NCBI GenBank assembly: GCA_001592145.1
Contig: BCWJ01000020.1
Location: forward strand, 1-52,095
Reading direction: 5' to 3'
Length of the DNA stretch: 52,095 bases
Source: Xylanimicrobium pachnodae JCM 13526 = NBRC 107786
GTDB taxonomy: Bacteria > Actinomycetota > Actinomycetes > Actinomycetales > Cellulomonadaceae
Every line of letters starts with the position of its first letter. The stretch's first letter is position 1. The notes under the pieces were generated by a model, which did no database searches, was not told the origin of the DNA, and saw only the letters and a list, made by a program, of their open reading frames with translations. This document shows positions 190 through 52,004 of this stretch, one piece after another. The position numbers and the translations under genes are program-made.

Positions 190-218
190 GGACCAGGCGG
201 CAGCCCCATCCCACATAG
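190..218 (+). promoter_or_regulatory. Bipartite intergenic element, copy 1 (29-nt type)
   Basis: GGACCA box, fixed spacer, then TCCCACATAG. It ends 5 nt before the ATG of the exonuclease gene. If it is a promoter, that transcript would be leaderless or nearly so. Confidence 0.6.
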
Positions 219-223
219 CCCCT

Positions 224-1798
224 ATGACAACGAGCGCAATGCTCGGGCCGGACAGAGACTCGGCCCCGAGCGGCACGAAGGAACGTGCCCCCGCCCGCAA
301 GGGGTACGAGGATCTGACCCAGATCACCGCATGGGACGACCGGGGCCGGTTCGTCATCACAGACTCCGACGCGTTGGCGTCGATCGTCCGCACCCGGCTG
401 TCGCCGTCGACGATGAAGTCGATGAAGGACTGCACCGCCCGGTGGGCGGCGGAGTCCTTGTTCCCGCGCCGAGACGACCCGTACGCCGCGAACGGACAGG
501 GCACCGCCGCGCACAAGGTGTTCGAACGGCTGATGCAGATGCCCCCGCACCAGCGCACCATGTACCACGCGCACGAACTGGTCAACCAGGTCGCACGCGA
601 GACGCTGGGCGGGGTGGACCACGCCCGCGCCCTGCCGTTGGCCGCGCAGATCCTGCCGAAGGTCGACGGGCTGTGGGCGATCGACAACCCGGTCGACCTG
701 GATGTGGTCTCCACCGAGTTTCGCGCCGAGCAGATCGATATCGAAGGCATCCCGTTCGTCGGGATCATCGACCTGGTCACCCGCCTGACCGAGAACAACG
801 TCAAGATCATCGACTACAAGACCGGCGCACTCAAGTCCGCGTCGTACTACAAGAGGTTCGGCGACGGGTACGGCGACCAAATCCGCCTGTACAAACTCGC
901 CTGGGAAAAGGTGCACCCTACCGACAGCGTGACCATCGGCACGCTGTATCACACCGCGGAAAAGAAGCAGCGAGTCATTGACATTTCCGACCGGGAAGTG
1001 CGCCTGACCTTGCGTCGCTGGAAGAAGGCGTGGGCGACCCTGCAGAACGTGCAGGAAACCGGCGTGTTCGAGACGAAGGTGGACGGGCTGTGCGCGTACT
1101 GCCCGCTCGTTCAGGTGTGCCCAGCGGCCCGCGCGGCGGGCAAGGAGCCCAAGATCGCCGTCCCGGACCCCTCCCTGCTGCCGATGACCGCCGAGCACCG
1201 TGCCCAGGTCGCTGCCCAGGACGAGGCCGACAACGCGCTGCTCGGAGATGACATCGCCCCCCTTCTCACTACAGAGACGACAGACGAGACCCCCAACCCG
1301 ACCTCGGAGGAACCCATTGTGAAGACCGCAACTACCCCGCGTCTCGGAGACGGCAAGGTGTGGGAGGAGAAGGACGGCCCCCTGCTCAACGGCAACTCGT
1401 ACGCCGCCATGGGCCTGTTCGGGCTCGTCGGCATGGCTGTCGAGCACCTGGGCAAGGCGGGCCAGCCGATCACCCCGTCCAACGTGCGCGCCCTGGCGCA
1501 CACCTTCGGCAAGGTGGTCCTGGCCGCCCAGGCAAAGGTGACCGGGTCGCAGTCGTGGCAGGACGGCGCCAACACCCGGATGCGTGGCGCGCTGCACACC
1601 GTCCTGGACTCCCCCGATATGGCTCTGCCGTGGGGCGGGGACGAGGCCGCGTGGCGCGGCTGGGCACTCAAGGCGGTGCGCCGGTCCGTCTCGATCGCCT
1701 CCGTGGTCACCGACCTGTGGGCGGGCGGCCCCGACGACAAGCCCTGGCTGCCCCTGGCCGCCACGGGCGCCGACCTGGCCGACGAGGATGCGGCGTGA
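224..1798 (+). CDS. Cas4/RecB-like PD-(D/E)XK exonuclease with Fe-S cluster cysteines
   Basis: The 524-aa product carries the nuclease core of the RecB/Cas4 superfamily: a GIIDLV strand (about residue 187) followed by IIDYKTG (about 200), supplying the metal-binding Asp, Asp and Lys. A CxxCx5C group (GLCAYCPLVQVC, about residue 290) plus an upstream Cys in MKDC (about 70) matches the four-cysteine 4Fe-4S pattern of Cas4/AddB-type nucleases. Such proteins degrade or process DNA ends and are common in actinophage replication or recombination blocks. The last about 170 residues, after an Asp/Glu/Thr-rich linker, form a separate helical domain of unknown role. The start is the ATG just after element copy 1; no strong ribosome-binding site is visible. 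The stop overlaps the next start (GTGA). Confidence 0.85.
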   Translation: MTTSAMLGPDRDSAPSGTKERAPARKGYEDLTQITAWDDRGRFVITDSDALASIVRTRLSPSTMKSMKDCTARWAAESLFPRRDDPYAANGQGTAAHKVFERLMQMPPHQRTMYHAHELVNQVARETLGGVDHARALPLAAQILPKVDGLWAIDNPVDLDVVSTEFRAEQIDIEGIPFVGIIDLVTRLTENNVKIIDYKTGALKSASYYKRFGDGYGDQIRLYKLAWEKVHPTDSVTIGTLYHTAEKKQRVIDISDREVRLTLRRWKKAWATLQNVQETGVFETKVDGLCAYCPLVQVCPAARAAGKEPKIAVPDPSLLPMTAEHRAQVAAQDEADNALLGDDIAPLLTTETTDETPNPTSEEPIVKTATTPRLGDGKVWEEKDGPLLNGNSYAAMGLFGLVGMAVEHLGKAGQPITPSNVRALAHTFGKVVLAAQAKVTGSQSWQDGANTRMRGALHTVLDSPDMALPWGGDEAAWRGWALKAVRRSVSIASVVTDLWAGGPDDKPWLPLAATGADLADEDAA

Positions 1799-2400
1799 GC
1801 GGTTCCCGCGCCCCCAAGGGGGTTCCCCAGTGGGTGGTGCGCGCCGCGATGGCGGGCACCACCTTGCTGGTCGTCGCGTCGTTCATCCTCAGTTTTGCGT
1901 CCCTGACCGACCTTGCCCGCCGGTCAGGGATCAACCCGCACCTGGCGTGGTTGTGGCCGCTGATCGTGGACGGCCTGATCGTGGTGGCCACCGCTGCGAT
2001 CATCGCGCTCGCCGGGCATTCAAAGGGTGTCACCTGGTTCCCGTGGGTGCTGTTGTTCGGCGGCGCCGGGGTGTCGGTGGCGGGCAACGCCGCGCACGCG
2101 ATCTTGTCCGCGCATGCCCTGGACGACGGGTTCCCGCTCGCTGTCTCGACCGCCGTCGCGTCCGTCCCGCCGATCGTGCTGCTCGCGGTCACCCACCTGA
2201 TGGTGGTGCTCATCGCGAACCAGTCGAGTGCCGTCAAGCGGGTCAAGAAGCCGAAGAAGGTACGCGACCCGGCACCCGTCCGTTCGACGCGGGCACAACA
2301 GCCCATCACCGTCCCCCGGTGGACGACGACCCACACGCCTGTCGCGGTTCCCGAGACGGTCTCAGACCGCTCCCCCGACACCGCTCCCGCGCTTGTGTGA
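1795..2400 (+). CDS. DUF2637-like four-helix membrane protein
   Basis: This 201-aa protein has four hydrophobic segments: TTLLVVASFILSF, WPLIVDGLIVVATAAIIALA, WVLLFGGAGVSVAG and PPIVLLAVTHLMVVLIA. A basic, Pro/Thr-rich cytoplasmic tail follows. The 'HLAWLWPLIVDGLIV' stretch is characteristic of DUF2637 proteins, which are widespread on actinobacterial plasmids, integrative elements and phages; their role is unproven. The GTG start overlaps the exonuclease stop by 4 nt, so the two are translationally coupled. Confidence 0.8.
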   Translation: MSGSRAPKGVPQWVVRAAMAGTTLLVVASFILSFASLTDLARRSGINPHLAWLWPLIVDGLIVVATAAIIALAGHSKGVTWFPWVLLFGGAGVSVAGNAAHAILSAHALDDGFPLAVSTAVASVPPIVLLAVTHLMVVLIANQSSAVKRVKKPKKVRDPAPVRSTRAQQPITVPRWTTTHTPVAVPETVSDRSPDTAPALV

Positions 2401-2414
2401 GCCGCCTGGCACCT

Positions 2415-2443
2415 CGATCAGGGTTCCGCGTCATCCCACATAC
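2415..2443 (+). promoter_or_regulatory. Bipartite intergenic element, copy 2 (29-nt type, divergent 5' box)
   Basis: CGATCA in place of GGANCA, then CATCCCACATAC. It lies about 60 nt upstream of the next gene, after the stop of the membrane-protein gene. Confidence 0.5.
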
Positions 2444-2502
2444 CTAGTAGCCCCCTGGGCATCCGAAGATCACGAGCACCGTCAACATTCAGTGAGCGAA
2501 CC

Positions 2503-3018
2503 ATGAGCGACAGCAACACCGCCGAGGCCCTCGGCCCGACCCCTCTGACCACCCAGATCGCGCTGGCCGCGGTCACCGCAGCCGGACCCGTCGGCGACGA
2601 CGAGATCGCCTGGCACGAGCGCGTAGCCGACCTGGCAGGCAAGATCACCCAGGATCTCGTCTCCCCGTTCTCCCCGGTCCGCAAGTCAATCGAGGCAATC
2701 ACGAACGCCGACAAGAAGTTTGTCTGTGTCATCGAACGAGTCCAGCGCGAGAAGTCCTCCACCCGCGCGCTCGTCACCGTCAAGGCGCGCAAGTCCACGT
2801 ACTCCCCGGACGGACAGGAGACGTTCCGCACGGACCGCACCGCCGGTGACGCCCACGCGCTCGCCCTGGCGAAGTACCTGACCAGCCTCAAGGGGCACAA
2901 GGTGCTGGCGTACCTGGCGATGGAGAAAACCCGCGACGGGCAGAAGGTCCGCGTCGTCAAGGCGGTCGCCGATCTCGGTGAGGCCACCGGCGACGAGTTC
3001 GAGGACAAGGCCGCCTGA
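2503..3018 (+). CDS. Hypothetical protein, possible OB-fold ssDNA-binding candidate
   Basis: 171 aa. The middle (about residues 65-110) alternates hydrophobic residues like a beta-barrel (KKFVCVIERVQ, TRALVTVKARKS), and the C-terminus is acidic (GDEFEDKAA), as in single-stranded DNA-binding proteins. Its position in the same block as a recombination nuclease fits a DNA-transaction role. I recognise no signature motif, so OB-fold/SSB is only a suggestion. ATG start; a GC-rich hairpin follows the stop. Confidence 0.6.
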   Translation: MSDSNTAEALGPTPLTTQIALAAVTAAGPVGDDEIAWHERVADLAGKITQDLVSPFSPVRKSIEAITNADKKFVCVIERVQREKSSTRALVTVKARKSTYSPDGQETFRTDRTAGDAHALALAKYLTSLKGHKVLAYLAMEKTRDGQKVRVVKAVADLGEATGDEFEDKAA

Positions 3019-3027
3019 CCTCACCAT

Positions 3028-3066
3028 CCCGGCCCGCGGCCACGGCGCACCTAACGCCGGGCCGGG
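3028..3066 (+). terminator. Strong inverted repeat after the block-1 genes
   Basis: CCCGGCCCG (3028-3036) is exactly complementary to CGGGCCGGG (3058-3066) across a 21-nt loop. No U-tract follows, so it would be an actinobacterial-style non-canonical terminator or an mRNA-stabilising hairpin. Confidence 0.5.
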
Positions 3067-3201
3067 GGCCACCTTGCGCATGGTGCCGGGTCGATGGGCA
3101 GCGAAACGCGCCCGCAATGTCGGAATCCGGTGACAGGTGGGGCTACCCTGCTTCAGCCCACCGCAGCGAGGCGGCCCCGGGCGCACGGAAAGGGGATCGT
3201 C

Positions 3202-3405
3202 GTGGACGAGGACGAAGCGCTGGCGGCACTGGACCAGGAGGAGCAGGAGCGGCGCACGTTCGGGCAGGGCACCAACCGAGTCACCATCCCGCTGACCGAC
3301 CATGAGCGCGGCATGCTCGAAAGCATCGCCGCTGGGTGGGGCGTGTCCGTCCCGGTTGCGTCCCGCCGTCTACTGCTGCTCGCTGCCAACGTCACCGTGA
3401 TCTAG
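3202..3405 (+). CDS. Small ribbon-helix-helix-like DNA-binding protein
   Basis: The 67-aa product starts at a GTG preceded by GGAAAGGGG; upstream in-frame starts are less coding-like. 'NRVTIPLTDHERGMLESIA' followed by 'SVPVASRRLLLLAA' reads as a beta-strand and two helices, as in Arc/MetJ-type (RHH) regulators such as antitoxins or phage repressors. There is no partner toxin next to it. The N-terminus is acidic. Confidence 0.55.
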   Translation: MDEDEALAALDQEEQERRTFGQGTNRVTIPLTDHERGMLESIAAGWGVSVPVASRRLLLLAANVTVI

Positions 3406-3428
3406 GCCCTGACGGTCTGGCCTGGGGT

Positions 3429-3457
3429 TAAGCAGGCTCCTGCCCCGTCCCACATGG
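3429..3457 (+). promoter_or_regulatory. Bipartite intergenic element, copy 3 (29-nt type)
   Basis: TAAGCA box, spacer, then GTCCCACATGG. The CAT of the 3' box overlaps the apparent ATG of the next gene, so the true start may be the GTG at 3463, six bases after the element. Confidence 0.5.
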
Positions 3458-3792
3458 TCGGTGTGTCGAACCTCTACACCAGCGCCTACCTGGTCATTGC
3501 AGTCGTAGCCACCCTCTCCACCGTGGGCGCACTCATCTTGAACGCCACGTCCAAGACCTTCTCGATCGAAGTGCCGGACGACGGTTCGACGCCGCTCATC
3601 GCAGTTGCTGTCAGTGCGGCGGTCTTCGGGTGGATCGGGTTCGCTCTCCTGCTGACCACAGACCTGCCGGACAACGCGTTCTTCTCCATCACCATCACCT
3701 CCGCGCTCTTGACGATCAACGGAGTCGAGCGGGTCGTGGAGTTCGCGCACCGCCGCGCGACCGTCGGAGCCGCCGCGGAGTCGGCACGCTGA
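3454..3792 (+). CDS. Small membrane protein
   Basis: 112 aa with three hydrophobic segments: AYLVIAVVATLSTVGALIL, IAVAVSAAVFGWIGFALLL and a weaker one near the C-terminus. A short basic tail (RR, R) suggests a cytoplasmic end. The function is unknown. The ATG lies inside the element; GTG 3463 (VSNLYTSAYL) is an equally good, probably leaderless, start. Confidence 0.65.
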   Translation: MVGVSNLYTSAYLVIAVVATLSTVGALILNATSKTFSIEVPDDGSTPLIAVAVSAAVFGWIGFALLLTTDLPDNAFFSITITSALLTINGVERVVEFAHRRATVGAAAESAR

Positions 3793-3930
3793 CGGCGATC
3801 GGCGCCTGGACCTGCCCCATGCCCGACTGCGCTGTCGGTTAGCCGTGCACGTGCGGGGACCACGCCGCGCATCTCCCGGCACGCCGTCGGGTCGATCTTC
3901 AAATCGGACGACGCCCCGGACGCAGGTGCT

Positions 3931-3959
3931 GGAGCACATCCGGTCCCCGCACCACATAA
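3931..3959 (+). promoter_or_regulatory. Bipartite intergenic element, copy 4 (29-nt type)
   Basis: GGAGCA, then CCGGTCCCC in the spacer, then CACCACATAA. It stands 50 nt before the ATG at 4011 and heads a run of about ten tightly packed genes. Confidence 0.65.
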
Positions 3960-4010
3960 GGAGCAGAGGCCCCAGGAACCGGCCACCCGACTCACCAAGG
4001 AGCAGATCCC

Positions 4011-4247
4011 ATGCGCGCGAACTACTGGATGCCCGCCCGACTCGACTCGACGTTCGCCGGACGGGATGCGAACAACTGGGTTGCTGCACGCGTCGGTGTC
4101 TGTGAACGCGGCGTCGTCGCCTCCGACATCACTGCACAGGAGCGCAAGACGATGCTGTCGCGCACCCCAGGGGGCAGGCTGCGCCGGTTCGCGACCGCCG
4201 AGCAGGCCAAGACGCTGGCCGACCGGCTCAACGCCCAGGAGGGCTGA
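4011..4247 (+). CDS. Hypothetical protein
   Basis: 78-aa basic protein with a good AAGGAG ribosome-binding site. It has no motif I recognise. First gene of the block that follows element copy 4; 3 nt separate it from the next gene. Confidence 0.65.
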   Translation: MRANYWMPARLDSTFAGRDANNWVAARVGVCERGVVASDITAQERKTMLSRTPGGRLRRFATAEQAKTLADRLNAQEG

Positions 4248-4250
4248 GCG

Positions 4251-4505
4251 GTGACACGACTTGGAAAGCGTCAGCGGGCGCTGCTGCGGTTCGCCGCCGA
4301 CGGCGCATTGCAGTTGCACATGAGCCGTCAGGGGGCCAACGACGTGCACAGCCCTGGCATCGGAGCGAACTTCCGCGAGCAGGAGGTCGAGCGGCTCGCC
4401 AACCTAGGGCTGGTCGACTACGAGCCGGGCAAGCACTTCCTTGCCCAGAACGTCATCCTGACCGACGCGGGGCGCGCTGCCCTTGCCGAGATGAAGGAGG
4501 GCTGA
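4251..4505 (+). CDS. Small winged-helix-like protein
   Basis: 84 aa, GTG start. 'REQEVERLANLGLVDY' followed by 'VILTDAGRAALAEM' resembles the recognition helix, wing and final helix of MarR/PadR-like winged-helix domains, but the domain is short. Possible transcription regulator; the fold call is by eye only. Confidence 0.6.
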   Translation: MTRLGKRQRALLRFAADGALQLHMSRQGANDVHSPGIGANFREQEVERLANLGLVDYEPGKHFLAQNVILTDAGRAALAEMKEG

Positions 4506-4508
4506 CCG

Positions 4509-4922
4509 ATGATCAAACACTTCACGCTCGCGTATGCGGGCCGGGCAATCCCCGTCATGCTGGGCGACGACGGCATCTTGCGTAACGGTGCGGGTCGGGC
4601 GGTGTGCGGACGGTGCGGCAAGCCGGTCCAGCGCAACTACGAGTGGTGGCGGCACGCGCTCACGGACGACTACCTGGGCGGCTGCTGGTGGGGCAAGCCC
4701 CGACTCCAGCCCGATGAGATGTTCTGGACTGACCATCTGCGCGTACTCCCCGGCGAGATTGACCGCCAGATCGACGCCGCGATGAAGCGCAAACAGCAGA
4801 TGCTCCTGACCCCGCGCGAGGTCGAACAGGTCGAAGCCGCGCTGGACACACCGACGACCCCGATCCCTGAACTGGCCGACGCGATCCGTCGCGCCCGCAC
4901 CGACATCGAGACGGAGGACTGA
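4509..4922 (+). CDS. Hypothetical protein with a CxxC pair
   Basis: 137 aa. One CGRC motif near residue 33 and a later lone Cys (GGCWW) could hold zinc. The C-terminal half is helical and charged (LTPREVEQVEAAL). It sits inside the coupled run 4011-6701. Confidence 0.65.
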   Translation: MIKHFTLAYAGRAIPVMLGDDGILRNGAGRAVCGRCGKPVQRNYEWWRHALTDDYLGGCWWGKPRLQPDEMFWTDHLRVLPGEIDRQIDAAMKRKQQMLLTPREVEQVEAALDTPTTPIPELADAIRRARTDIETED

Positions 4923-4925
4923 ACG

Positions 4926-5162
4926 ATGAGGCACGTAGTGCAGATGCAGATCGTCGTTGACGCACCGGACGACATGGCCGCCTTCGAAATCCAGGAGCAC
5001 CTTCTGGGGAACTGGGCGATGGGAGACCGCCGTCATGAAGGCATCACCGTCATCGACCCGAAGGTCTCGCTGTTTCACGCAGGTATCACCCACGGCGCAG
5101 TTGACACAGACGACGTTCCCTGCGGTCCGCGAGTCGAGCCGCGGTACCGGACGAATGCCTGA
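4926..5162 (+). CDS. Hypothetical protein
   Basis: 78 aa, three bases after the previous stop. The N-terminal 'VQMQIVVDAPDDMAAFEIQEHL' predicts a strand and a helix, a small alpha/beta fold. No recognised family. Confidence 0.6.
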   Translation: MRHVVQMQIVVDAPDDMAAFEIQEHLLGNWAMGDRRHEGITVIDPKVSLFHAGITHGAVDTDDVPCGPRVEPRYRTNA

Positions 5163-5165
5163 CCG

Positions 5166-5396
5166 ATGACCGCCGAGACCACCTTCAATCGGAACTGGGC
5201 TGGACACAGGTTCGTCACCCGTGACGGCAAGCGCACCGTCGTCATCGTTCGCGAGGTGTCGGAGTTCCGTGGTGAGCGGATGTTCCGCATCCGCACCATC
5301 AACTACCCCGAGCGCCCCGACCTGATCGGCCGCGAGTCGACTATCAGCGCCTCCGGACTGACCCGCACGTACGTACCCATCGAGATGGAGGACTGA
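5166..5396 (+). CDS. Small phage protein, paralogue of the gene at 13845
   Basis: 76 aa. It shares 'SEFRGERMFR', 'YPERPDL' and 'GRESTIS' with the product at 13845-14066, with near identity across the whole length. The predicted fold is a small beta-rich domain. The duplication within one replicon suggests modular copying of small genes. Function unknown. Confidence 0.7.
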   Translation: MTAETTFNRNWAGHRFVTRDGKRTVVIVREVSEFRGERMFRIRTINYPERPDLIGRESTISASGLTRTYVPIEMED

Positions 5397-5399
5397 CAG

Positions 5400-5540
5400 A
5401 TGGCAGACCAGATGGTCTATTGCTGCCCTGGGTGTGGGGCGAAGGAGCGGGGCCTGCACATCGTCTCTCGCCACGACGGCAAGTGGGAGATCGACTGCTT
5501 CACGACCCGTGTGACCTACATCGTGGAGGCGCGCCGGTGA
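5400..5540 (+). CDS. 46-aa zinc-ribbon mini-protein
   Basis: Short gene with ATG 4 nt after the previous stop. 'YCCPGCGAKERG' supplies a CxxC knuckle and a further Cys lies in 'EIDCF'. Its stop overlaps the next GTG (GTGA), which supports real translation. Confidence 0.6.
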   Translation: MADQMVYCCPGCGAKERGLHIVSRHDGKWEIDCFTTRVTYIVEARR

Positions 5541-5722
5541 ACGACACCATGACCACCCCGATCGGCGCACGACCCGAGACGCCCGGCGAGCCGTGGTACG
5601 AGACGGCATACCGGAACCGCCGTATCGACACCGTCGACGTGCTGGCCGAGCGGATGGCGGCCCTGTCCGCCGCGTACGACTGGCGCGCCGACGTCGAGGC
5701 GAAGAAGGCGGCGACGAAGTGA
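5537..5722 (+). CDS. Hypothetical small protein
   Basis: 61 aa from a GTG overlapping the previous stop; an internal ATG at 5549 is an alternative start. Charged and helical ('DVLAERMAALSAAYDWRADVEA'). No family recognised. Overlaps the next GTG by 4 nt. Confidence 0.55.
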   Translation: MNDTMTTPIGARPETPGEPWYETAYRNRRIDTVDVLAERMAALSAAYDWRADVEAKKAATK

Positions 5723-5844
5723 AGCGACTGCGCTGCCGGTTTCGCGGCCACCGCTGGCAGGCCGCATCGTTCCCCGTCTCCGGAGGTGACTGGTTGAACG
5801 GGCGTGTGTGCGCCCGCTGCGAGCACATCGAGATGAAGGGCTAA
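5719..5844 (+). CDS. 41-aa zinc-knuckle mini-protein
   Basis: GTG start coupled to the previous stop. 'LRCRFRGHRW' and 'GRVCARCEHIEM' give two Cys/His clusters, the standard pattern of small actinophage zinc-binding proteins. Confidence 0.55.
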   Translation: MKRLRCRFRGHRWQAASFPVSGGDWLNGRVCARCEHIEMKG

Positions 5845-5847
5845 CCG

Positions 5848-6081
5848 ATGACCGCGTACAGATTCGTCACCCTCACCTGTGACGACTGCGGCGAGATCAG
5901 CGACTCGGGCGGCGCTCTCACCCTCGCCGAGGCCCGCAGTGTCGCCCGCGCTGAAGGCTGGCAGCACGACCGCATCCACGGCGACCGCTGCCCACGCAGT
6001 TTCGGGTACGCCAGCATCGAGGGCACGTGGGTGAAGAAGACCTGGGAAGACACCGAACCGAGCAGGGAGGACGGACAGTGA
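5848..6081 (+). CDS. Zinc-ribbon-like protein
   Basis: 77 aa. 'TLTCDDCGEISDSG' (CxxC) near the N-terminus, then a helix 'LAEARSVARAEGW' and 'DRCPRSFG'. The layout (CxxC, helix, 'GW', Cys) recurs in many small actinobacterial proteins of unknown role. Confidence 0.65.
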   Translation: MTAYRFVTLTCDDCGEISDSGGALTLAEARSVARAEGWQHDRIHGDRCPRSFGYASIEGTWVKKTWEDTEPSREDGQ

Positions 6082-6416: not shown

Positions 6417-6419
6417 TCG

Positions 6420-33327: not shown

Positions 33328-33356
33328 GGACCAGAGTCGCAGCCCGTCCCACATGG
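33328..33356 (+). promoter_or_regulatory. Bipartite intergenic element, copy 14 (29-nt type)
   Basis: GGACCA, spacer, GTCCCACATGG. First of two tandem copies in front of the tRNA array. Confidence 0.65.
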
Positions 33357-44296: not shown

Positions 44297-44325
44297 GGAG
44301 CACCCGCAGCGCCCGCCCCACATGG
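44297..44325 (+). promoter_or_regulatory. Bipartite intergenic element, copy 16 (29-nt type)
   Basis: GGAGCA, spacer, GCCCCACATGG; 46 nt before the ATG at 44372. Confidence 0.65.
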
Positions 44326-46378: not shown

Positions 46379-46405
46379 GCGCCGCGATGGGGCCAGAGCA
46401 CTGCC

Positions 46406-46476
46406 CGGTCGCTGACGCTCGCGCGTGTGCTGATCCGGCTGATGCCGGACCAGCAGCGAGTCCCCACCCCACGTAG
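46406..46476 (+). repeat. 71-bp dispersed repeat, copy B
   Basis: Gap-free match to 8443-8513, including the hairpin TCCGGC-TGAT-GCCGGA. The T in the loop differs and the stem is conserved. Confidence 0.75.
46447..46476 (+). promoter_or_regulatory. Bipartite intergenic element, copy 17 (30-nt type)
   Basis: GGACCA, spacer, CCCCACGTAG; 47 nt before the ATG at 46524. Confidence 0.65.
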
Positions 46477-46523
46477 ATCGTAGAAGCCGCCACCGGGACG
46501 GCGCCGAACAGGAGGACGCAACG

Positions 46524-46694
46524 ATGGACGAGACGACAGCCGTGACCACCGAGCAGGTGCGCGCTGCCGTGGTCGCCGCCGGGTTCAGCGCCGAGGCGTT
46601 CGGAGACTGGCTGGACGAGCACGACCAGAAGGTCAGGCATGAAGGCTGGAAAGACGGCGCAGACTGGGCCGAGCAGTACGGGCAGGAGGGCTGA
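46524..46694 (+). CDS. 56-aa hypothetical protein
   Basis: AGGAGG 8 nt upstream. 'EQVRAAVVAAGFSAEAFGDWLDEHDQKVRHEGWKDGADWAEQYGQEG' is an acidic helical peptide. First gene after element copy 17. Confidence 0.6.
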   Translation: MDETTAVTTEQVRAAVVAAGFSAEAFGDWLDEHDQKVRHEGWKDGADWAEQYGQEG

Positions 46695-46697
46695 ACC

Positions 46698-47087
46698 GTG
46701 ACCGCTCCCAAACCGCTGACCGAGCCGCAACACCGCGCTCTCGTCGCGCTGATCGAACTGGCCGACTCCTCACGGGTGCCCGGTGGGCCGCCGATGTTCT
46801 GGGTGGCACCGCGTGCGCTTGCCAAGGCGTTGTGGCCGGACTCGCCCGCGTGGGAGCGGCGCACCCGGTTCGGTGCGGTAGGCAACCAGGGGGCGCTCGG
46901 TGGCACGATGCCGATGAAGGCGGGCCGCATGCTGGCCACCTTGAAAGAACTGGGGCTGGCCGAGCCGCATGACGACTGGCGCCAGAACCTTTGGACGCCG
47001 ACCTATCGGGGCCGTGGTGTGCTCGCCGGGACAGCGGACCCGCTGCCGCGCCCCAAGGCGCCACGCCAACCTGAGACGGAGGGCTGA
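46698..47087 (+). CDS. Probable winged-helix protein, family copy 1
   Basis: 129 aa, GTG start. 'LTEPQHRALVALIELAD', 'LAKALWPDSPAWERRTR', 'GGTMPMKAGRMLATLKELGL' and 'LWTPTYRGR' are shared with the genes at 50874, 51224 and 51555. Helix, recognition helix and wing suggest DNA binding. Confidence 0.7.
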   Translation: MTAPKPLTEPQHRALVALIELADSSRVPGGPPMFWVAPRALAKALWPDSPAWERRTRFGAVGNQGALGGTMPMKAGRMLATLKELGLAEPHDDWRQNLWTPTYRGRGVLAGTADPLPRPKAPRQPETEG

Positions 47088-47090
47088 GCG

Positions 47091-47351
47091 ATGGCACGCA
47101 TCACCCGAGCACGCGTTCTGGTGACACCTGGCCGCATCGCTCGCCTGCCGAAGTGGGCGCGCGAGTACATCGAGGCGCTGAAGGAAGACGCCAGCGGGGC
47201 ACACCTCAGCGTGGACCCCGAACGGATCGAGCGCCTGCCTGCCTGGGCGCGACACCACATCTATGTGTTGACCCACCCGCAGCGCCCGGAACCGCCCCGA
47301 CGCGCCCTCAAGCGGTTCCCCCACACCACCAAGGAGACCCCGGATGCCTGA
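47091..47351 (+). CDS. Hypothetical protein with internal repeat
   Basis: 86 aa. 'RIARLPKWAREYIEALKED' and 'RIERLPAWARHHIYVLTHP' are two copies of one helical unit, seen in other phages as single small domains. Function unknown. Confidence 0.65.
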   Translation: MARITRARVLVTPGRIARLPKWAREYIEALKEDASGAHLSVDPERIERLPAWARHHIYVLTHPQRPEPPRRALKRFPHTTKETPDA

Positions 47352-47592
47352 GCCGCAGGACGAGACGTTCAACGTGGAAACCGCGCTGCGCAGGCTCGCT
47401 CAACGCAGCGACCGGCTCACAGGTGGGCAAGGCGATGTCTCCGTTGCTTACGACGGCGGAACCGCTAACCCCTGGTACGTCGGCGTCGCAGTGAAGCCCG
47501 CAGGCAAACGCGACCGCATCCAGCGGTTCACCGGAGCGTCGGTGGCCGATGTGGTTCGTCGTGCCGCTGATGCTGTCGCGGCGGCGCTCTGA
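47344..47592 (+). CDS. Hypothetical protein
   Basis: 82 aa. 'VSVAYDGGTANPWYVGVAVKPAGKRDRIQRFTGASVADVVRRAADAVAAAL': strands then a helix, a double-strand-RNA-binding-like order, but not a clear match. Overlaps both neighbours. Confidence 0.6.
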   Translation: MPEPQDETFNVETALRRLAQRSDRLTGGQGDVSVAYDGGTANPWYVGVAVKPAGKRDRIQRFTGASVADVVRRAADAVAAAL

Positions 47593-47747
47593 TGCCTGAT
47601 CCGCGCGAAGAGACAACACCGATCTTCACGACTCTGCTGCGAGCCTCCTCTGAGATGCTTAGCCTGCACGACCATGACCCGGTGGTGCGCTCCTGGTTAA
47701 CCCAGGCTGACATCGAGGCTGACGAGGCGAGGTCCCCTAATGGCTGA
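47592..47747 (+). CDS. 51-aa hypothetical protein
   Basis: TGATG overlap with the previous gene. 'PIFTTLLRASSEMLSLHDHDPVVRSWLTQADIEADEARSPNG'. Helical and acidic. Confidence 0.5.
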   Translation: MPDPREETTPIFTTLLRASSEMLSLHDHDPVVRSWLTQADIEADEARSPNG

Positions 47748-47761
47748 CGACCTCAAGCGAG

Positions 47762-47872
47762 ATGGCATGCCTGCGCGCCGAGGGCCTGATCCAGCCTCCC
47801 CTGCCTGCCAAGCCGGTGCCGATACGGAGCCGCTGGCTGTCCGAAGACGACGAACCACACCAGGGCGACTGA
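47762..47872 (+). pseudogene. Small frame, possibly a broken gene
   Basis: 'MACLRAEGLIQPPLPAKPVPIRSRWLSEDDEPHQGD' has coding-like third positions, but its ATG has no good RBS. A competing frame from ATG 47740 looks non-coding. May be the remnant of a gene that lost its start. Confidence 0.35.
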
Positions 47873-47925
47873 GTGCCCCGACCAGAGCGCGACCGCTCGG
47901 GCGACCGCAGATAGGAGAGGTATCG

Positions 47926-48231
47926 ATGCCGACCGACACGTACCTGGCAGAGCCATATCTCGGCTGGCTGAGAGCAGTTGAGCAGGGACGGGTCTGCGTG
48001 GAACCGCTGAGCAAGGGAGTACCGCTCATCGAGGCTCCAAACGGGCAGGCCATGCGCTTCACGGTGGACGACAAACCCGCCACCCCCGACCAGGGCGCGG
48101 TGCTGGCAGTGCTATTCCACGACGGGTACATCGAGTCATCCTGGGCGACGGGTGAAGAGTGGGCGCGTGTGTGGACCACGCAGCGCGGTGACCTGACGTT
48201 GGAGGCGAACAGTGCTGGCAATGGGCTCTGA
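47926..48231 (+). CDS. Hypothetical protein
   Basis: 101 aa; ATG chosen for its GGAGAGG site. 'GWLRAVEQGRVCVEPLSKGVPLIEAPNGQAMRFTVDD' is beta-rich. No family recognised. Confidence 0.6.
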   Translation: MPTDTYLAEPYLGWLRAVEQGRVCVEPLSKGVPLIEAPNGQAMRFTVDDKPATPDQGAVLAVLFHDGYIESSWATGEEWARVWTTQRGDLTLEANSAGNGL

Positions 48232-48511
48232 CCCCACGCCCGAAGACCTGATCGGTGTCGTCGTGCGAATCAAGCCGTTCCAGTCTGAGCGGCTGGCCGA
48301 CGTCGAGATCACGGGGATCGAGCACATCGAGGGCACACCAATCGCGATCGGGCGCCTGCCTTATAAGGGCACGTACACGCCCGGCAGCGCCCACGATGGC
48401 CGGTACCGCAAACGTAACCCGGTGGTCGTGCATGCGTCCGACGCTCTCGCCGCCCCTGTGTTGCGTCGCGTATTCGGGGCCGGACCAGACACCGGTCCCC
48501 TCCCCACGTAG
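48212..48511 (+). CDS. Hypothetical protein ending inside an element
   Basis: 99 aa from GTG 48212; ATG 48221 is an alternative. 'PEDLIGVVVRIKPFQSERLADVEITGIEHIEG' suggests a small barrel. The C-terminal GPDTGPLPT and TAG come from element copy 18. Confidence 0.6.
   Translation: MLAMGSDPTPEDLIGVVVRIKPFQSERLADVEITGIEHIEGTPIAIGRLPYKGTYTPGSAHDGRYRKRNPVVVHASDALAAPVLRRVFGAGPDTGPLPT
48482..48511 (+). promoter_or_regulatory. Bipartite intergenic element, copy 18 (30-nt type)
   Basis: GGACCA, CCGGTCCCC spacer, CCCCACGTAG. The TAG serves as a stop codon. Confidence 0.65.
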
Positions 48512-48550
48512 AACACACAGCACGCACCCACGAGCAGAAGGATCACGACC

Positions 48551-48886
48551 ATAAGCGAGCCCACCACCCAGCACAGCACCGTCACTGATGACGACCTGTT
48601 CGTCGGGGCGGTCGTGCGACACGGAGCAGGCGACGCCTTGTACGTGGTCGTCGGCATAGACGGTGACGATGTGCTGATCCGTTTGGCATTTCTGAGTTCG
48701 ATGGAGCCAATCGGGGCGACCCTTCGTCGCCGCGCCGACCAGGTGCGCCGTGACGACTGGGCGCGCGGGTACTGGCACGGGTACGACTACGGCAGGCGCG
48801 GCATGGGTTGGTCCGTTGAGTACGCCGAGGCGCAATCCGACGCGTACCAAGAGGGGTACCAGGACGGGTACGACGCCGCCTGGTGA
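48551..48886 (+). CDS. Hypothetical protein with apparent ATA start
   Basis: 111 aa if it begins at ATA 48551 (read 'SEPTTQHSTVTDDDLFVGAVVRHG'), which sits 10 nt after AGAAGGA. The next standard start, GTG 48614, would remove a conserved-looking beta strand. C-terminus is Tyr/Gly/Asp-rich ('YWHGYDYGRRGMGW', 'AYQEGYQDGYDAAW'), the repeated GYxDGYxAA pattern of small phage proteins. Confidence 0.6.
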   Translation: MSEPTTQHSTVTDDDLFVGAVVRHGAGDALYVVVGIDGDDVLIRLAFLSSMEPIGATLRRRADQVRRDDWARGYWHGYDYGRRGMGWSVEYAEAQSDAYQEGYQDGYDAAW

Positions 48887-48901
48887 CCTGGCCCCGGGGT
48901 C

Positions 48902-48931
48902 GGAGCAACCGCCGGTCCCCACCCCACTTGG
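48902..48931 (+). promoter_or_regulatory. Bipartite intergenic element, copy 19 (30-nt type)
   Basis: GGAGCA, GCCGGTCCCC spacer, CCCCACTTGG; 49 nt before the ATG at 48981. Confidence 0.6.
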
Positions 48932-48980
48932 AAGTGGAGAGGCCGCCACCCGGCGGTCACGAAACCGGAGGACGACCCCG

Positions 48981-49223
48981 ATGCCGACGAACACCAGCCA
49001 CCCGGTCAAAGACACCGACCTGACGATCGCCTACCCGCGCACCGGAGCGAACGCCGGATACGCCGTCCTGCACCAGACCGGATGCGCACACCTGGCCTTC
49101 ACCGACCGGTGGGACCACCCGCCGGTACACATCGGAACCGACCTGCGCCCTGAGGCGGACGATTGGTACGAGGTCGCCCCGTGCGCCCGTGCCTCCGCAC
49201 GCCGCAACCGCCTCGAAGACTAA
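48981..49223 (+). CDS. Hypothetical protein
   Basis: 80 aa, CGGAGG upstream. 'AGYAVLHQTGCAHLAFTDRWDHPP' and 'APCARASARR' give spaced Cys/His residues. A 'GC.HL' pattern like this recurs in small actinobacterial proteins. Function unknown. Confidence 0.6.
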   Translation: MPTNTSHPVKDTDLTIAYPRTGANAGYAVLHQTGCAHLAFTDRWDHPPVHIGTDLRPEADDWYEVAPCARASARRNRLED

Positions 49224-49234
49224 GGAACCATCCG

Positions 49235-49510
49235 ATGCGCACCACCCCCGTAGCGGACATCCAGAAGACAACCGAGGCCACCCAGTTCGACCCGGACAAG
49301 CACGTCGATCAGTGCTTCGTGTGCGGTCGCGGCCTGACCCGCGCAGCGGTCGAGCGCGGCTGGTACGTCCGCCTGCTCACCAACGGCTCCCTGGTGGCCG
49401 CAGGCGACGAGGTGACCGAGACCAGGCTGGACCAGGGCTGGTTCCCGGTCGGGTCGGAGTGCGCCAAGCAGGTGCCCCGCGAGTTCCGCACCCGCCGCAT
49501 CCCGGCATGA
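49235..49510 (+). CDS. Zinc-finger-like protein
   Basis: 91 aa. 'DQCFVCGRGLTRAAVERGWYVRLLTNGSL...FPVGSECAKQVPREF' carries a CxxCGR knuckle and a later Cys, like small phage CxxC proteins. Confidence 0.65.
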   Translation: MRTTPVADIQKTTEATQFDPDKHVDQCFVCGRGLTRAAVERGWYVRLLTNGSLVAAGDEVTETRLDQGWFPVGSECAKQVPREFRTRRIPA

Positions 49511-49522
49511 TCTGAGGGACGC

Positions 49523-49552
49523 GGAGCACCTGCCGGTCCCCACCCCACATAG
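49523..49552 (+). promoter_or_regulatory. Bipartite intergenic element, copy 20 (30-nt type)
   Basis: GGAGCA, GCCGGTCCCC spacer, CCCCACATAG; 47 nt before the ATG at 49600. Confidence 0.7.
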
Positions 49553-49599
49553 AGCATGAAGATCACCACCGGGTGGCAATCAGACGAGAGGAGCCCTCG

Positions 49600-49866
49600 A
49601 TGAGCGAGCAGACGGTTCGCCTGGTCCGCGACGGGCAGGGCGGCTACGCCACGCCCGACGGGCGCTGGGTTGTCGCGCCGGTCGACGGCATGGGCTCCGG
49701 GGTGAACAACAACGGCGGCTGGTCGAACGGCAAGCGCGCCTGGCGAATCACGGATACGACCGGACAAGCGATCCTGTCGAAGTACGGGGACCCGCACAGC
49801 GCGATTCGTGATCGGCTGTGGGAAGCCCGCGACCTCATCGCAGCAAAGACGAGCAAGGAGGACTGA
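49600..49866 (+). CDS. Hypothetical protein
   Basis: 88 aa, AGAGGAG upstream. 'VRLVRDGQGGYATPDGRWVVAPVDGMGSGVNNNGGWSNGKRAWRITD' is a beta-rich unit, then a helix. Function unknown. Confidence 0.65.
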   Translation: MSEQTVRLVRDGQGGYATPDGRWVVAPVDGMGSGVNNNGGWSNGKRAWRITDTTGQAILSKYGDPHSAIRDRLWEARDLIAAKTSKED

Positions 49867-49869
49867 ACG

Positions 49870-50139
49870 ATGGCGCGAGCACTGAAGGTGTACGGCTGGC
49901 AGGGTTTCCGCGAGGGGCTGACCAACTACACGTCGCGCGAGATCGTCCTGGCTGCGTCCAAGGCTGAGGTCGCGCGGGTGACAGGGCAGCGTGACAACCG
50001 TTTGTTCAACCTGTGCGAGACGGGCAACGCCGAGGAGGTCGCGGCGGCGACCGAGGCCGGGCAGGGCGTCATTTTGTGGCGCGGCATCGACGACCGCAAC
50101 GTGTCGTTCAACCGTGACGACCGACGAGGCGGTGCCTGA
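49870..50139 (+). CDS. Hypothetical protein
   Basis: 89 aa. 'VYGWQGFREGLTNYTSREIVLAASKAEVARVTGQRDNRLFNLCETGNAEEVAAATEAGQGVILWRGID': strands and helices in a small mixed fold common in phages. TGATG coupling to the next gene. Confidence 0.65.
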   Translation: MARALKVYGWQGFREGLTNYTSREIVLAASKAEVARVTGQRDNRLFNLCETGNAEEVAAATEAGQGVILWRGIDDRNVSFNRDDRRGGA

Positions 50140-50582
50140 TGGCCGAGCAGGCAGACATCGAGTTCATCGGCGCACCCATAGGTGACTGGCGTGACGGGTA
50201 TCGCGAAGCGGTGGCCCGGTACGTGGCCCAGCGCGGGAAGTTCGTGGACGAGGTGTACTACCGAGGCCCGTACGGCCCCTGGCAGAGCCGGGCGGACGAC
50301 GACTACGACGACCTCGCAACCCACTACGGCTGGGCGGACTACGACCACCTCGACCAACGTGAAGGGCGCGGGCAATGCCGCGTCGTGTCTGTCGACTTGT
50401 CCACGATGCGTGAGCAGACGTTGTCCGAGTTCATCGACACCGACGCGGACAACCTCATGCAGGTCGGCACCGAGTTCAAGGCCACCTGCGCGTGCGGTGC
50501 CTACACCAACCGCTGGTTGCGCTGGGAGGGCTCCGCGTCCGACATGCTCCACTCGATCCTCGGAACCGGCGGTGAGCGGTGA
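50139..50582 (+). CDS. Hypothetical protein with a C-terminal Cys pair
   Basis: 147 aa, acidic ('SRADDDYDDLATHYGWADYDHLDQ'), ending 'KATCACGAYTNRW' with CxCG. Function unknown. Overlaps the next gene by 4 nt. Confidence 0.65.
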   Translation: MAEQADIEFIGAPIGDWRDGYREAVARYVAQRGKFVDEVYYRGPYGPWQSRADDDYDDLATHYGWADYDHLDQREGRGQCRVVSVDLSTMREQTLSEFIDTDADNLMQVGTEFKATCACGAYTNRWLRWEGSASDMLHSILGTGGER

Positions 50583-50881
50583 CCGATCAGACGCAACCGG
50601 TGCTCGGCCTGGCCCCGTCGGGCATGTTCCACGCGGCCGACGGCTCGCAGATGTCCGACGACGGTTGGGCGCCCGCCCTGTGCCGTAAGTCCTTGTGGGT
50701 GTCGGTGGAGCACGAGTCATACACCGACCCGGACACCGGCAAGTGGCGCACCGTGCCGCTGCTGGCGTTCGCTGACGGGCTGCCGCGCGTCACCGACGAC
50801 GGCGTCCACATCGGGGACGTGCCCGGGTGCCTGCGATGCGCCCGGATGCTGCGCAGGGCGGAGGATCGGGTGCATGGCTGA
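50579..50881 (+). CDS. Hypothetical protein
   Basis: 100 aa, GTG start. 'PALCRKSLWVSVEHESYTDPDTGKWRTVPLLAFADGLPRVTDDGVHIGDVPGCLRCARML' has a CxxC pair near the end. Overlaps the next gene by 8 nt. Confidence 0.65.
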   Translation: MTDQTQPVLGLAPSGMFHAADGSQMSDDGWAPALCRKSLWVSVEHESYTDPDTGKWRTVPLLAFADGLPRVTDDGVHIGDVPGCLRCARMLRRAEDRVHG

Positions 50882-51227
50882 CGAGATCGTGCTCACTGAG
50901 CACCAGCGCCGCGCCCTCGAAGCCTTGGTCGAACTGGCGGGACCGATCGAAAGTGAGCGGCGCGCCTCGGCTCGTCAGGTTGCGCGCGTCCTGTGGCCCG
51001 ACTCGTCCGCATGGGGCAAACGAACGGGGCGGATTGACGGGCGCAGCGGAGCCAAGGGCGGGACGATGCCGATGAAGGCAGGACGGGTACTCTCCGAACT
51101 GGCTCGCCTCGGCCTGGTCTACGAGGCGCCAGACCCGATTCACGCGGCGATGGGTGCGGCCACGCCGAACCTTTGGGCGCCCACCAACAAGGGCCGGTCG
51201 CTGGCCGGGCGAGCGAGCGAGCGATGA
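50874..51227 (+). CDS. Probable winged-helix protein, family copy 2
   Basis: 117 aa. Shares 'LTEHQRRALEALVELA', 'ARVLWPDSSAWGKRT', 'GGTMPMKAGRVLSELARLGLV' and 'LWAPTNKGRSLAG' with copies 1, 3 and 4. First of three tandem copies linked by overlapping codons. Confidence 0.75.
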   Translation: MADEIVLTEHQRRALEALVELAGPIESERRASARQVARVLWPDSSAWGKRTGRIDGRSGAKGGTMPMKAGRVLSELARLGLVYEAPDPIHAAMGAATPNLWAPTNKGRSLAGRASER

Positions 51228-51562
51228 CTGACAGGGGCCTCACCAACCCGCAGCGGCGCGCTCTCGAAGCCCTTGTGCGGCTGGTCTCCGAGAGCGCGGA
51301 GACGACGGGGTCGCACGCCCGCTGGGTGACTCCGACCGAACTGGCTCGCGTGCTGTGGCCCGACTCGCCCGCGTGGCGCCACCAGACACGTCGCATGGAC
51401 GACTCCCTCGGGGGTGTCGGTGCCACCATGCCGATGCAGGCCGCCCGGCTCCTGCGCCGCCTGCGCGAGAAGGGATTGGCGCACCAGCACCCGTTTGGCG
51501 GTAACGGCTGGACCGCGACAGCGAGCGGGCGAGCACTGGTCAAGGGGGCGCGTCATGGCTGA
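51224..51562 (+). CDS. Probable winged-helix protein, family copy 3
   Basis: 112 aa; ATG overlaps copy 2's stop. 'LTNPQRRALEALVRLV', 'LARVLWPDSPAWRHQTRR', 'GATMPMQAARLLRRLREKGLA', 'GWTATASGRALVK'. Most likely DNA binding, target unknown. Confidence 0.75.
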   Translation: MTDRGLTNPQRRALEALVRLVSESAETTGSHARWVTPTELARVLWPDSPAWRHQTRRMDDSLGGVGATMPMQAARLLRRLREKGLAHQHPFGGNGWTATASGRALVKGARHG

Positions 51563-51914
51563 CGGCCCTGTGCTCACCGACCCGCAGCGGCGGGCGCTCG
51601 AAGCACTGGTGCGGCTCGCGGACGTCCCGGTCGGCACCGCGCAGGTCCCGCAGACCTGGGTCTCGCCGTGGCAGATCGCCCGCACCCTGTGGCCGGATTC
51701 TCCCGCCTGGAACCGCGCCACCCGCAGACCCGGCGACGCTGGAGCGGGCGCGGTGGGCGGCACCATGCCGATGAAGGCAGGCACGATCCTGCATCGACTG
51801 GGGAAGATGGGCCTCGCAGCGCGCAAGGGCGGCCGTATCGACGCCAACTGCTGGACGCCGACCAGCCGGGGCCGAGCCGCAGTGCGCAACGAGGCGGCGC
51901 CAGACACCCCGTGA
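51555..51914 (+). CDS. Probable winged-helix protein, family copy 4
   Basis: 119 aa; starts 8 nt before copy 3 ends. 'LTDPQRRALEALVRLAD', 'IARTLWPDSPAWNRATRR', 'GGTMPMKAGTILHRLGKMGLA', 'CWTPTSRGRAAV'. Tandem duplication with divergence of the central loop. Confidence 0.75.
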   Translation: MADGPVLTDPQRRALEALVRLADVPVGTAQVPQTWVSPWQIARTLWPDSPAWNRATRRPGDAGAGAVGGTMPMKAGTILHRLGKMGLAARKGGRIDANCWTPTSRGRAAVRNEAAPDTP

Positions 51915-51975
51915 TTGGCACGGTGCCCGCGAGAGGAACGGCCACGCCGGGTGTCCCCCGGTCCCGTCACGCTCC

Positions 51976-52004
51976 CGACCAGGTTCCCGGCTCGTCCCAT
52001 ATGA
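51976..52004 (+). promoter_or_regulatory. Bipartite intergenic element, copy 21 (29-nt type)
   Basis: CGACCA, spacer, CGTCCCATATGA. The 3' box overlaps the ATG at 52001; ATG 52010 lies six bases downstream. Confidence 0.55.

What the first reader, a model, noticed from the sequence alone, without database searches (positions are those of the whole stretch)
190..52004. A 21-copy, single-orientation bipartite element at gene-block boundaries
GGANCA, a spacer of fixed length, then (G/C)TCCCACATAG or CCCCACATAG recurs 21 times, always on the transcribed strand, with only two total lengths (29 and 30 nt). Most copies lie 25-60 nt before the first gene of a coupled block; a few touch the start codon. 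Two tandem copies precede the untranslated tRNA array, which excludes a purely translational role. The -10-like part is not TANNNT, so a dedicated sigma factor, a phage-encoded RNAP modifier or an L5-stoperator-like repressor site are possible. In about half the copies CCGGTCCCC can pair with an upstream GG(G)GNCCGG.
Basis: partly seen in the sequence, partly recalled or inferred. Interest (0 to 1): 0.78.

Follow-up and report, generated by a model that had tools for sequence, protein, structure and literature searches.

The report
Private promoters of giant actinobacterial plasmids
The repeated element is very probably a promoter found only on one very large plasmid and perhaps read by a sigma factor the plasmid itself carries; related giant plasmids have their own versions, so such plasmids may run many of their genes on a private switch.

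Summary
The repeat is real: 19 clear copies in the window, all on the + strand, 29 or 30 nt long. A matrix scan of ten contigs of the same assembly finds 58 at 18 bits or more (mirror control 1), and two patterns hit only those contigs. The replicon looks like a giant plasmid, not a phage, related to pACHL01 of Pseudarthrobacter, to Curtobacterium megaplasmids and, more distantly, to pMP7017.

The element behaves as a promoter: GGANCA (-35), 16/17 nt, CACATR (-10), start at a purine 7 nt after CACATR. ATG/GTG sits exactly there in 17 of 59 sites (leaderless genes). Related plasmids carry reiterated, diverged boxes with a matching start-site geometry: CCGCACACAT occurs 139 times on pACHL01 (mirror 0).

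A 299-aa plasmid protein (contig C32, outside the window) has orthologues on 8 of 8 related plasmids and resembles a divergent sigma28-type factor: Sigma70_r3 weakly in 9 of 9, and sigma factors fill the Foldseek list, though with low TM-scores. The start-site geometry is strong sequence inference; the sigma and its pairing with the boxes are weaker inference and need RNA ends and in-vitro transcription. SigN of pBS32 is the closest precedent.

The parts
190..218 (+). promoter copy (29 nt); predicted start 224 = ATG of the 224-1798 ORF (leaderless)
   Evidence: matrix 35.0 bits; ORF
2415..2443 (+). promoter copy (29 nt), predicted start 2449
   Evidence: 18.0 bits
3429..3457 (+). promoter copy (29 nt), predicted start 3463 = GTG (leaderless)
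   Evidence: 24.5 bits
3931..3959 (+). promoter copy (29 nt), predicted start 3965
   Evidence: 26.2 bits
7898..7926 (+). promoter copy (29 nt), predicted start 7932
   Evidence: 26.7 bits
8484..8513 (+). promoter copy (30 nt), predicted start 8519 (no Y before it)
   Evidence: 33.9 bits
12781..12810 (+). promoter copy (30 nt), predicted start 12816
   Evidence: 20.4 bits
15297..15326 (+). promoter copy (30 nt), predicted start 15332
   Evidence: 32.3 bits
16340..16369 (+). promoter copy (30 nt), predicted start 16375
   Evidence: 30.5 bits
19502..19531 (+). promoter copy (30 nt), predicted start 19537
   Evidence: 21.5 bits
21916..21945 (+). promoter copy (30 nt), predicted start 21951
   Evidence: 32.0 bits
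24918..24947 (+). weak candidate copy (30 nt), not counted among the 19
   Evidence: 17.7 bits in the first matrix
33328..33356 (+). first of two tandem copies before the tRNA array; predicted start 33362 is a purine but lacks the Y before it
   Evidence: 31.3 bits
33386..33414 (+). second tandem copy before the tRNA array; predicted start 33420 is a purine but lacks the Y before it
   Evidence: 33.9 bits
33437..43479 (+). array of 39 tRNA genes, with RtcB ligase (41747-42970) inside; downstream of the tandem promoters
   Evidence: ARAGORN; Pfam RtcB E=4.9e-122
44297..44325 (+). promoter copy (29 nt), predicted start 44331
   Evidence: 28.6 bits
46447..46476 (+). promoter copy (30 nt), predicted start 46482
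   Evidence: 29.3 bits
48482..48511 (+). promoter copy (30 nt), predicted start 48517
   Evidence: 27.0 bits
48902..48931 (+). promoter copy (30 nt), predicted start 48937 (no Y before it)
   Evidence: 25.6 bits
49523..49552 (+). promoter copy (30 nt), predicted start 49558
   Evidence: 32.3 bits
51976..52004 (+). weaker copy (29 nt), predicted start 52010 = ATG (leaderless)
   Evidence: 16.1 bits

Best explanation
Each copy is a promoter of a giant actinobacterial plasmid. GGANCA is the -35 element, CACATR (within CCCACATRR) the -10 element, with a 16- or 17-nt spacer, and transcription starts at the purine 7 nt after CACATR. About 3 in 10 copies put a start codon exactly at that purine (leaderless mRNA); most others leave a leader before the first gene of a block, and a tandem pair precedes the tRNA array. 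The promoter is read not by the host's housekeeping sigma but by host core RNA polymerase carrying a plasmid-encoded, divergent sigma28-type factor (299 aa, contig C32:16726-17625, - strand), which is conserved with the plasmid family. Shown by sequence: reiteration, element-specificity, fixed geometry, matching geometry in related plasmids. Inferred: the start site, the polymerase, that the protein is a sigma, and that it recognises these boxes.
For: Reiteration and restriction to ten contigs. Start-site signature: the 6th position after the box is a purine in 56 of 59 sites, YR in 49 of 59, also in 32 of 42 sites without a start codon there (background 0.267). ATG/GTG exactly there in 17 of 59 (background 0.031), 13 of the 17 opening a frame of 60 aa or more. 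50 of 59 sites lie within 150 nt upstream of a same-strand gene start, random 267 of 3000. Relatives: CCGCACACAT 139, 97, 127, 138 and 133 times on five Arthrobacter-group plasmids and 18, 17, 19 on three Curtobacterium plasmids, mirror control 0 in seven of the eight and 1 in one. On pACHL01 the box is bipartite ([CT]GGNNA[GC] from -21, G at -20 in 135 of 139), YR at +17 in 101 of 139, ATG/GTG at +17 in 70 of 139, of which 32 have no other start codon inside the box; in one 43-kb stretch 5 of 9 exact boxes have a RefSeq start at +17. Start codon at +17 is also the commonest offset in Curtobacterium D40 (19 of 51 and 15 of 19) and three unnamed family genomes (5 of 13, 6 of 14, 5 of 7). Aligned by eye on that start, the boxes share C(-12)A(-11). 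Sigma: orthologue on 8 of 8 related plasmids (pACHL01 protein as query); profile against PDB, 14 of 15 hits sigma factors, best FliA E=0.0029; Pfam Sigma70_r3 in 9 of 9 members, best 1.2e-4, Sigma70_r4_2 in 5 of 9; Foldseek, the 50 rows shown are sigma factors or chains of initiation complexes that I read as sigma, best E=0.0019; homologues beside flagellar clusters in 7 of 10 family genomes looked at.
Against: No RNA data for this plasmid. For our protein the only Pfam match (Sigma70_r3, 14.8 bits) is below its cut-off of 25.3; in five orthologues a general helix-turn-helix model (HTH_11, best 1.5e-5) scores better than any sigma model. Foldseek TM-scores are low (0.21-0.33, rmsd 21-26 A) and no hit reaches E<=0.001; the model has pLDDT 71 and pTM 0.41. 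A profile of 14 host proteins, some only LuxR-like, did not list the protein among the hits shown; the 21-sequence profile matched sigma factors only at E about 0.5, behind EncB at 0.1; one flagellar-type homologue found nothing in PDB; our protein as tblastn query reached only 4 of the 8 plasmids. The box itself contains ATG in many sites (32 of 59 here, 81 of 139 on pACHL01), in frame with the predicted start, so some start codons are ambiguous. YR at +17 is not a sharp peak in G198 and G043. D40 shows no clear -35 partner, and the upstream element's spacing differs between plasmids (16/17 nt here, about 19 in pACHL01). In pMP7017 the similar GTCCACATA lies just after a sigmaA-like TATACT, where it would be transcribed. 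9 of 59 sites have no same-strand gene start within 150 nt, and the tRNA-array copies lack the Y before the purine.
Confidence: 0.68

Rival explanations
1. Promoters read by host sigma factors (sigmaA with a plasmid-encoded activator that appropriates it, or a host ECF sigma): GGANCA resembles an ECF -35, and some of these plasmids carry WhiB-type genes that could remodel sigma region 4.
For: GGANCA looks like a GGAAC-type -35 (recalled). WhiB genes are annotated on Curtobacterium and Bifidobacterium plasmids. No Sigma70_r2 or r4 family hit lies on the element contigs.
Against: No hit of either pattern on any contig outside the ten, so no host regulon is seen. The -10 is neither TANNNT nor an ECF CGTC (recalled). 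A sigma-like protein goes with the plasmids.
Confidence: 0.18
2. Operator or stoperator: the box is the binding site of a plasmid repressor or activator overlapping ordinary promoters.
For: In pMP7017 a plasmid-specific 34-bp motif overlapping TATACT was read that way by its authors, and several GTCCACATA copies there lack TATACT.
Against: No sigmaA-type -10 is conserved near the boxes here; fixed spacing to a YR start and to start codons in several plasmids; the boxes occupy the -10 position.
Confidence: 0.1
3. RNA-level or translational element (leader motif, processing site), perhaps with a 5' hairpin.
For: A perfect-stem search found hairpins in 18 of 48 leaders against 9.1 expected.
Against: Energy z-scores show little: mean -0.47 for 32 leaders here, +0.25 for 37 on pACHL01, -0.13 for 105 control upstream regions. 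Start codons at a fixed place right after the box leave little room for a ribosome site; two copies precede tRNAs.
Confidence: 0.04

Closest known systems
SigN (ZpdN) of Bacillus subtilis plasmid pBS32 (PMC6751061, abstract and passages seen)
   Different: Different consensus; SigN is DNA-damage induced, autoactivated and kills the cell, and was shown by experiment. Here there are about 60-140 promoters on the plasmids counted, many leaderless, and the sigma is only a sequence and fold candidate.
34-bp motif of Bifidobacterium megaplasmid pMP7017 (PMC10832533, abstract passages and section 15 seen)
   Same: Plasmid-wide, absent from chromosomes, GTCCACATA resembles GTCCCACATR; the replicons share a transfer-type ATPase (about 27-31% identity across the Bifidobacterium records).
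   Different: There it follows an extended TATACT -10 and was proposed as a transcription-factor site; no orthologue of the sigma was found in Bifidobacterium plasmids (E up to 0.01).
FliA/SigD-type sigma28
   Same: Best PDB profile hit (FliA) and best fold hit (9a7s, RPSD, taken as SigD from the recalled UniProt mnemonic); homologues lie beside flagellar clusters.
   Different: Very divergent, plasmid-borne, different -10/-35.
L5 stoperators and start-associated sequences of mycobacteriophages (recalled)
   Same: Short asymmetric motifs reiterated across a replicon.
   Different: Those are phage repressor or start-associated sites; here the motif is bipartite and at promoter position.

Membership tests
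sigma70 family (sigma28-type) for the C32 protein | sequence similarity to sigma regions 2, 3 and 4 | tested here: inconclusive
   Sigma70_r3 9 of 9 and Sigma70_r4_2 5 of 9 members at weak E-values, ours below cut-off; PDB profile 14 of 15 hits sigma but weaker with the broad profile; no Sigma70_r2 hit
sigma70 family (sigma28-type) for the C32 protein | sigma2-sigma3-sigma4 fold | tested here: inconclusive
   the 50 Foldseek rows shown read as sigma factors, but best E 0.0019 and TM-scores 0.21-0.33; model pLDDT 71, pTM 0.41
sigma70 family (sigma28-type) for the C32 protein | binds core RNAP and directs initiation | not testable with these tools
   needs biochemistry
bacterial promoter with -35/-10 | two boxes 16-18 nt apart and a start purine about 7 nt after the -10 | tested here: met
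   (sequence only)
bacterial promoter with -35/-10 | mapped 5' RNA ends | not testable with these tools
   no RNA data
pACHL01-type actinobacterial megaplasmid | shared core genes | tested here: met
   90 of 379 called proteins of the 12 element contigs have homologues on pACHL01 and/or the D40 parts read
tailed phage | capsid, portal, terminase genes | tested here: inconclusive
   none found among the proteins scanned, which are only part of the 379; the best PHROG terminase hits fall on intein-bearing ATPases
L5-type stoperator | repressor operator not tied to a start site | tested here: not met
   start-codon and YR excess at a fixed offset

The most novel reading that the evidence does not exclude
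A family of giant actinobacterial plasmids transcribes much of its genome through a private, sigma28-derived sigma factor that has co-diverged with 60-140 promoters per plasmid, many giving leaderless mRNAs; in the plasmid studied, which also has 39 tRNAs and RNA-repair enzymes, this amounts to a partly autonomous gene-expression system.
Probability: 0.52. Interest if true: 0.82.

Novelty: new variant of a known kind. Interest (0 to 1): 0.71.

Why it matters
It would give a single handle on the expression of a poorly understood class of 300-600-kb plasmids, help explain plasmid-specific motifs such as that of pMP7017, and provide a natural series of sigma/promoter pairs that diverged together, useful for asking how promoter recognition changes. 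It could also offer an orthogonal transcription system for high-GC bacteria.

Tried and rejected
Phage origin: megablast of window 1-20000 against phages gave nothing and of 20001-45000 only short matches in RtcB and one of 54 nt in a tRNA; 45001-52095 was not searched. Megablast of 1-25000 against plasmids gave nothing; only protein searches found the relatives. Best terminase-like PHROG hits fall on intein-bearing PilB and FtsK-type ATPases; a weaker one (C20:81627-84101) has only weak AAA matches in Pfam. Host sigma: no Sigma70_r2 or r4 family hit on element contigs. Second RNAP: PF00562 has one hit, on C9; divergent phage-type RNAPs would be missed. 69-aa HTH on C47 and the xre-type HTH at 11033-11737: only weak sigma4-like scores. 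5' hairpin leader: not supported. Exact 29-nt pattern in viral contigs: 0. DNA-polymerase scan of viral contigs: one contig at 27% identity, not followed. Literature: no report of this motif or sigma seen in those listings; only PMC10832533 and PMC6751061 were opened. Protein comparison A1/A4 shares its first sequence and is not used. The hmmsearch used three mis-framed sequences and is not used.
Full report
OBSERVATION. The bipartite repeat is real. In the window 19 copies score 15.5 bits or more with a two-box matrix, 18 of them 18 bits or more, all on the + strand. The window is bases 1-52095 of contig C20 (85,355 bp) in a 4.0-Mb, 79-contig assembly. Genome-wide, the 30-nt form (up to 3 mismatches) has 14 hits and the 29-nt form 38, with 0 and 1 control hits, all on ten contigs. 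On those ten contigs (303,620 bp) the matrix finds 73 sites at 14 bits or more (mirror 5) and 58 at 18 or more (mirror 1); of 65 sites at 16 bits or more, 47 are 29 nt, 16 are 30 nt and 2 other. After the matrix was retrained and two contigs were added, 71 sites reach 18 bits on 12 contigs (326,110 bp; mirror 1), and a 21.8-kb sample of other contigs has none at 16 bits. The ten contigs were first drawn by the motif itself; protein homology supports their membership independently (below). Orientation follows the genes.

REPLICON. The contigs encode PilB and PilC (T2SSE, T2SSF), an FtsK-like and a VirB4-type ATPase (both weak in Pfam, read from sequence and relatives), DUF285 and pilin-type surface proteins, a phage-like DnaE-type polymerase, topoisomerase II, ribonucleotide reductase, NAD ligase, RtcB and RlaP; PilB and the FtsK- and VirB4-type ATPases carry inteins. 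No capsid or portal gene and no convincing terminase was found among the proteins scanned, which are only part of the 379 called. Proteins of the element match plasmids of Pseudarthrobacter, Arthrobacter, Paenarthrobacter and Curtobacterium (375-608 kb) and, for the VirB4-type ATPase, Bifidobacterium. 90 of 379 called proteins have homologues on pACHL01 and/or the parts of Curtobacterium D40 that I read (388 of 608 kb), and each of the 12 contigs has some. C20 and C47 share an end. Transfer was not shown, a relaxase was not sought, and PLSDB types the eight related plasmids as non-mobilizable.

ANATOMY. Over 59 sites (18 bits or more, ten contigs): C-GGA-N-CA-[GC], N7/8, CCCC[GA][TC]CCCACAT[GA][GA], CAGG[CT], purine. 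The 6th base after the box is A in 38, G in 18 and T in 3. YR occurs there in 49 of 59, and in 32 of 42 sites without a start codon at that place (background 0.267). ATG or GTG begins exactly there in 17 of 59 and one base later in 5 (background 0.031 per place). 15 sites open a frame of 60 aa or more at one of these two places; of the other 44, 22 have the start codon 41-51 nt after the box. Taking the purine as +1 puts CACATR at -12 to -7 and GGANCA at the -35 position with a 16- or 17-nt spacer. The ATG inside CACATG (32 of 59) is in frame with the +1 codon, so some starts are ambiguous; sites with CACATA or CACAGG, such as 190-218, are not.

RELATIVES. On pACHL01 the 10-mer CCGCACACAT occurs 139 times (mirror 0), preceded from -21 by [CT]GG[GT][GC]A[GC] (G at -20 in 135 of 139, A at -16 in 120 of 139) and followed at +17 by a purine (125 of 139); ATG/GTG is at +17 in 70 of 139, and 81 have one at +8 inside the box, 38 both. 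In the 43-kb stretch L056, 5 of 9 exact boxes have a RefSeq start at +17. Four further Arthrobacter-group plasmids have 97, 127, 138 and 133 copies, two further Curtobacterium plasmids 18 and 17, D40 has 19, and pMP7017 0. D40 has a second box, CCGCGCATAG, 51 times in the parts read, with YR at +17 in 41 and a start codon there in 19 (and at +15 in 15), but no clear -35 partner. In family genomes G133 and G198 the box is TGCCGCACAT, in G043 CCCGTCAAC; a start codon at +17 is the commonest (5 of 13, 6 of 14, 5 of 7), while YR there (10, 9 and 6) is not a sharp peak in G198 and G043. Aligned by eye on the predicted start, the boxes share C at -12 and A at -11, the place of the key A of other -10 elements (recalled). 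pMP7017 differs: GTCCACATA follows an extended TATACT -10 and would be transcribed; several copies lack TATACT. Its authors read it as a transcription-factor site absent from bifidobacterial chromosomes (PMC10832533, section 15).

SIGMA CANDIDATE. C32:16726-17625 (-), 299 aa, lies outside the window. Orthologues occur on 8 of 8 plasmids with the pACHL01 protein as query; ours as query reached 4. They sit next to a short overlapping gene and ParA-like or AAA ATPase genes in most; the short gene is a possible anti-sigma (inference). For: Pfam Sigma70_r3 in 9 of 9 (best 1.2e-4) and Sigma70_r4_2 in 5 of 9; PDB profile, 14 of 15 hits sigma factors, FliA best at 0.0029; Foldseek's 50 shown rows of 146 are sigma factors or initiation-complex chains that I read as sigma, best E 0.0019; two are named RPSD and RPSB, which I recall as SigD and SigB. 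Against: ours is below the Pfam cut-off, HTH_11 scores better in five members, TM-scores are 0.21-0.33 and no E is 0.001 or below, the model has pLDDT 71 and pTM 0.41, and the 21-sequence profile gives EncB at 0.1 ahead of sigma factors near 0.5. In 221 family genomes the profile hits 13 including our own. Of the 12 others I fetched the surroundings of 10 (not G190, G193): in 7 the homologue sits beside a cluster homologous to the flagellar cluster of D40 (FlhB, FliP, FliM, FliG verified there) and my k-mer test found no reiterated box; in 3 (G043, G133, G198) it found one.

MECHANISM. Most likely the plasmid sigma directs host core polymerase to these promoters, serving gene blocks and the tRNA array. 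On pACHL01 no box lies upstream of the sigma operon (395 bp, up to 2 mismatches). On our plasmid a box at C32:24475 (18.8 bits, leaderless for the first gene) starts a run of - strand genes that ends with the sigma gene 6.9 kb on, so feedback is possible there. Steps shown: reiteration, restriction to the element, geometry, matching geometry in relatives. Steps inferred: start sites, sigma activity, the pairing of sigma and box.

COMPARISON. Plasmid-encoded sigma factors with plasmid regulons are known: SigN of pBS32 (PMC6751061, abstract and passages). This would be a separate case with many more promoters and many leaderless genes. Searches listed no report of it; papers outside that library were not searched.

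Noticed in passing
C20:58719-72648 (-), beyond the window; also contigs C24, C43, C30, C32, C33: About 36 otherwise mostly unlike proteins share an N-terminal tag of some 30 residues (M-x-TIDxxGALHDxxGQYAxxxxPAAGYDL), as if for common targeting or transfer. A strict pattern finds it in 34 proteins here but in 1 of those called on pACHL01 and the D40 parts.
   Followed up: partly
40082-40157: ARAGORN reports a tRNA with a four-base anticodon (ttgg) within the 39-gene array; a possible frameshift-suppressor tRNA.
   Followed up: no
9890-11029 and 41130-42970: RlaP-type RNA-repair protein, a PTH2-like protein and RtcB ligase accompany the tRNA array, suggesting repair or defence of tRNAs.
   Followed up: no
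C25:325-3642, C20:73317-78875, C40:5933-10423, C48:4670-8095: Four ATPase-like proteins of the element carry LAGLIDADG inteins; they misled the PHROG terminase matches.
   Followed up: partly
L095 (Curtobacterium D40 plasmid): A 608-kb plasmid carries a flagellar gene cluster (FliG, FliM, FliP, FlhB); homologous clusters in seven family genomes have a homologue of the plasmid sigma beside them.
   Followed up: partly
17186-18259: TnpB-type (IS605 OrfB) protein; whether a TnpA lies nearby was not checked.
   Followed up: no
C32:2-6289 (-) and C25:4867-11739 (-): Giant DUF285 (BspA-like) surface proteins of over 2000 aa, the first cut by the contig end.
   Followed up: no
L057:31714-31815: PLSDB lists a 102-bp NDM-19 prediction on Curtobacterium D40; too short to be a gene and probably an artefact.
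   Followed up: no
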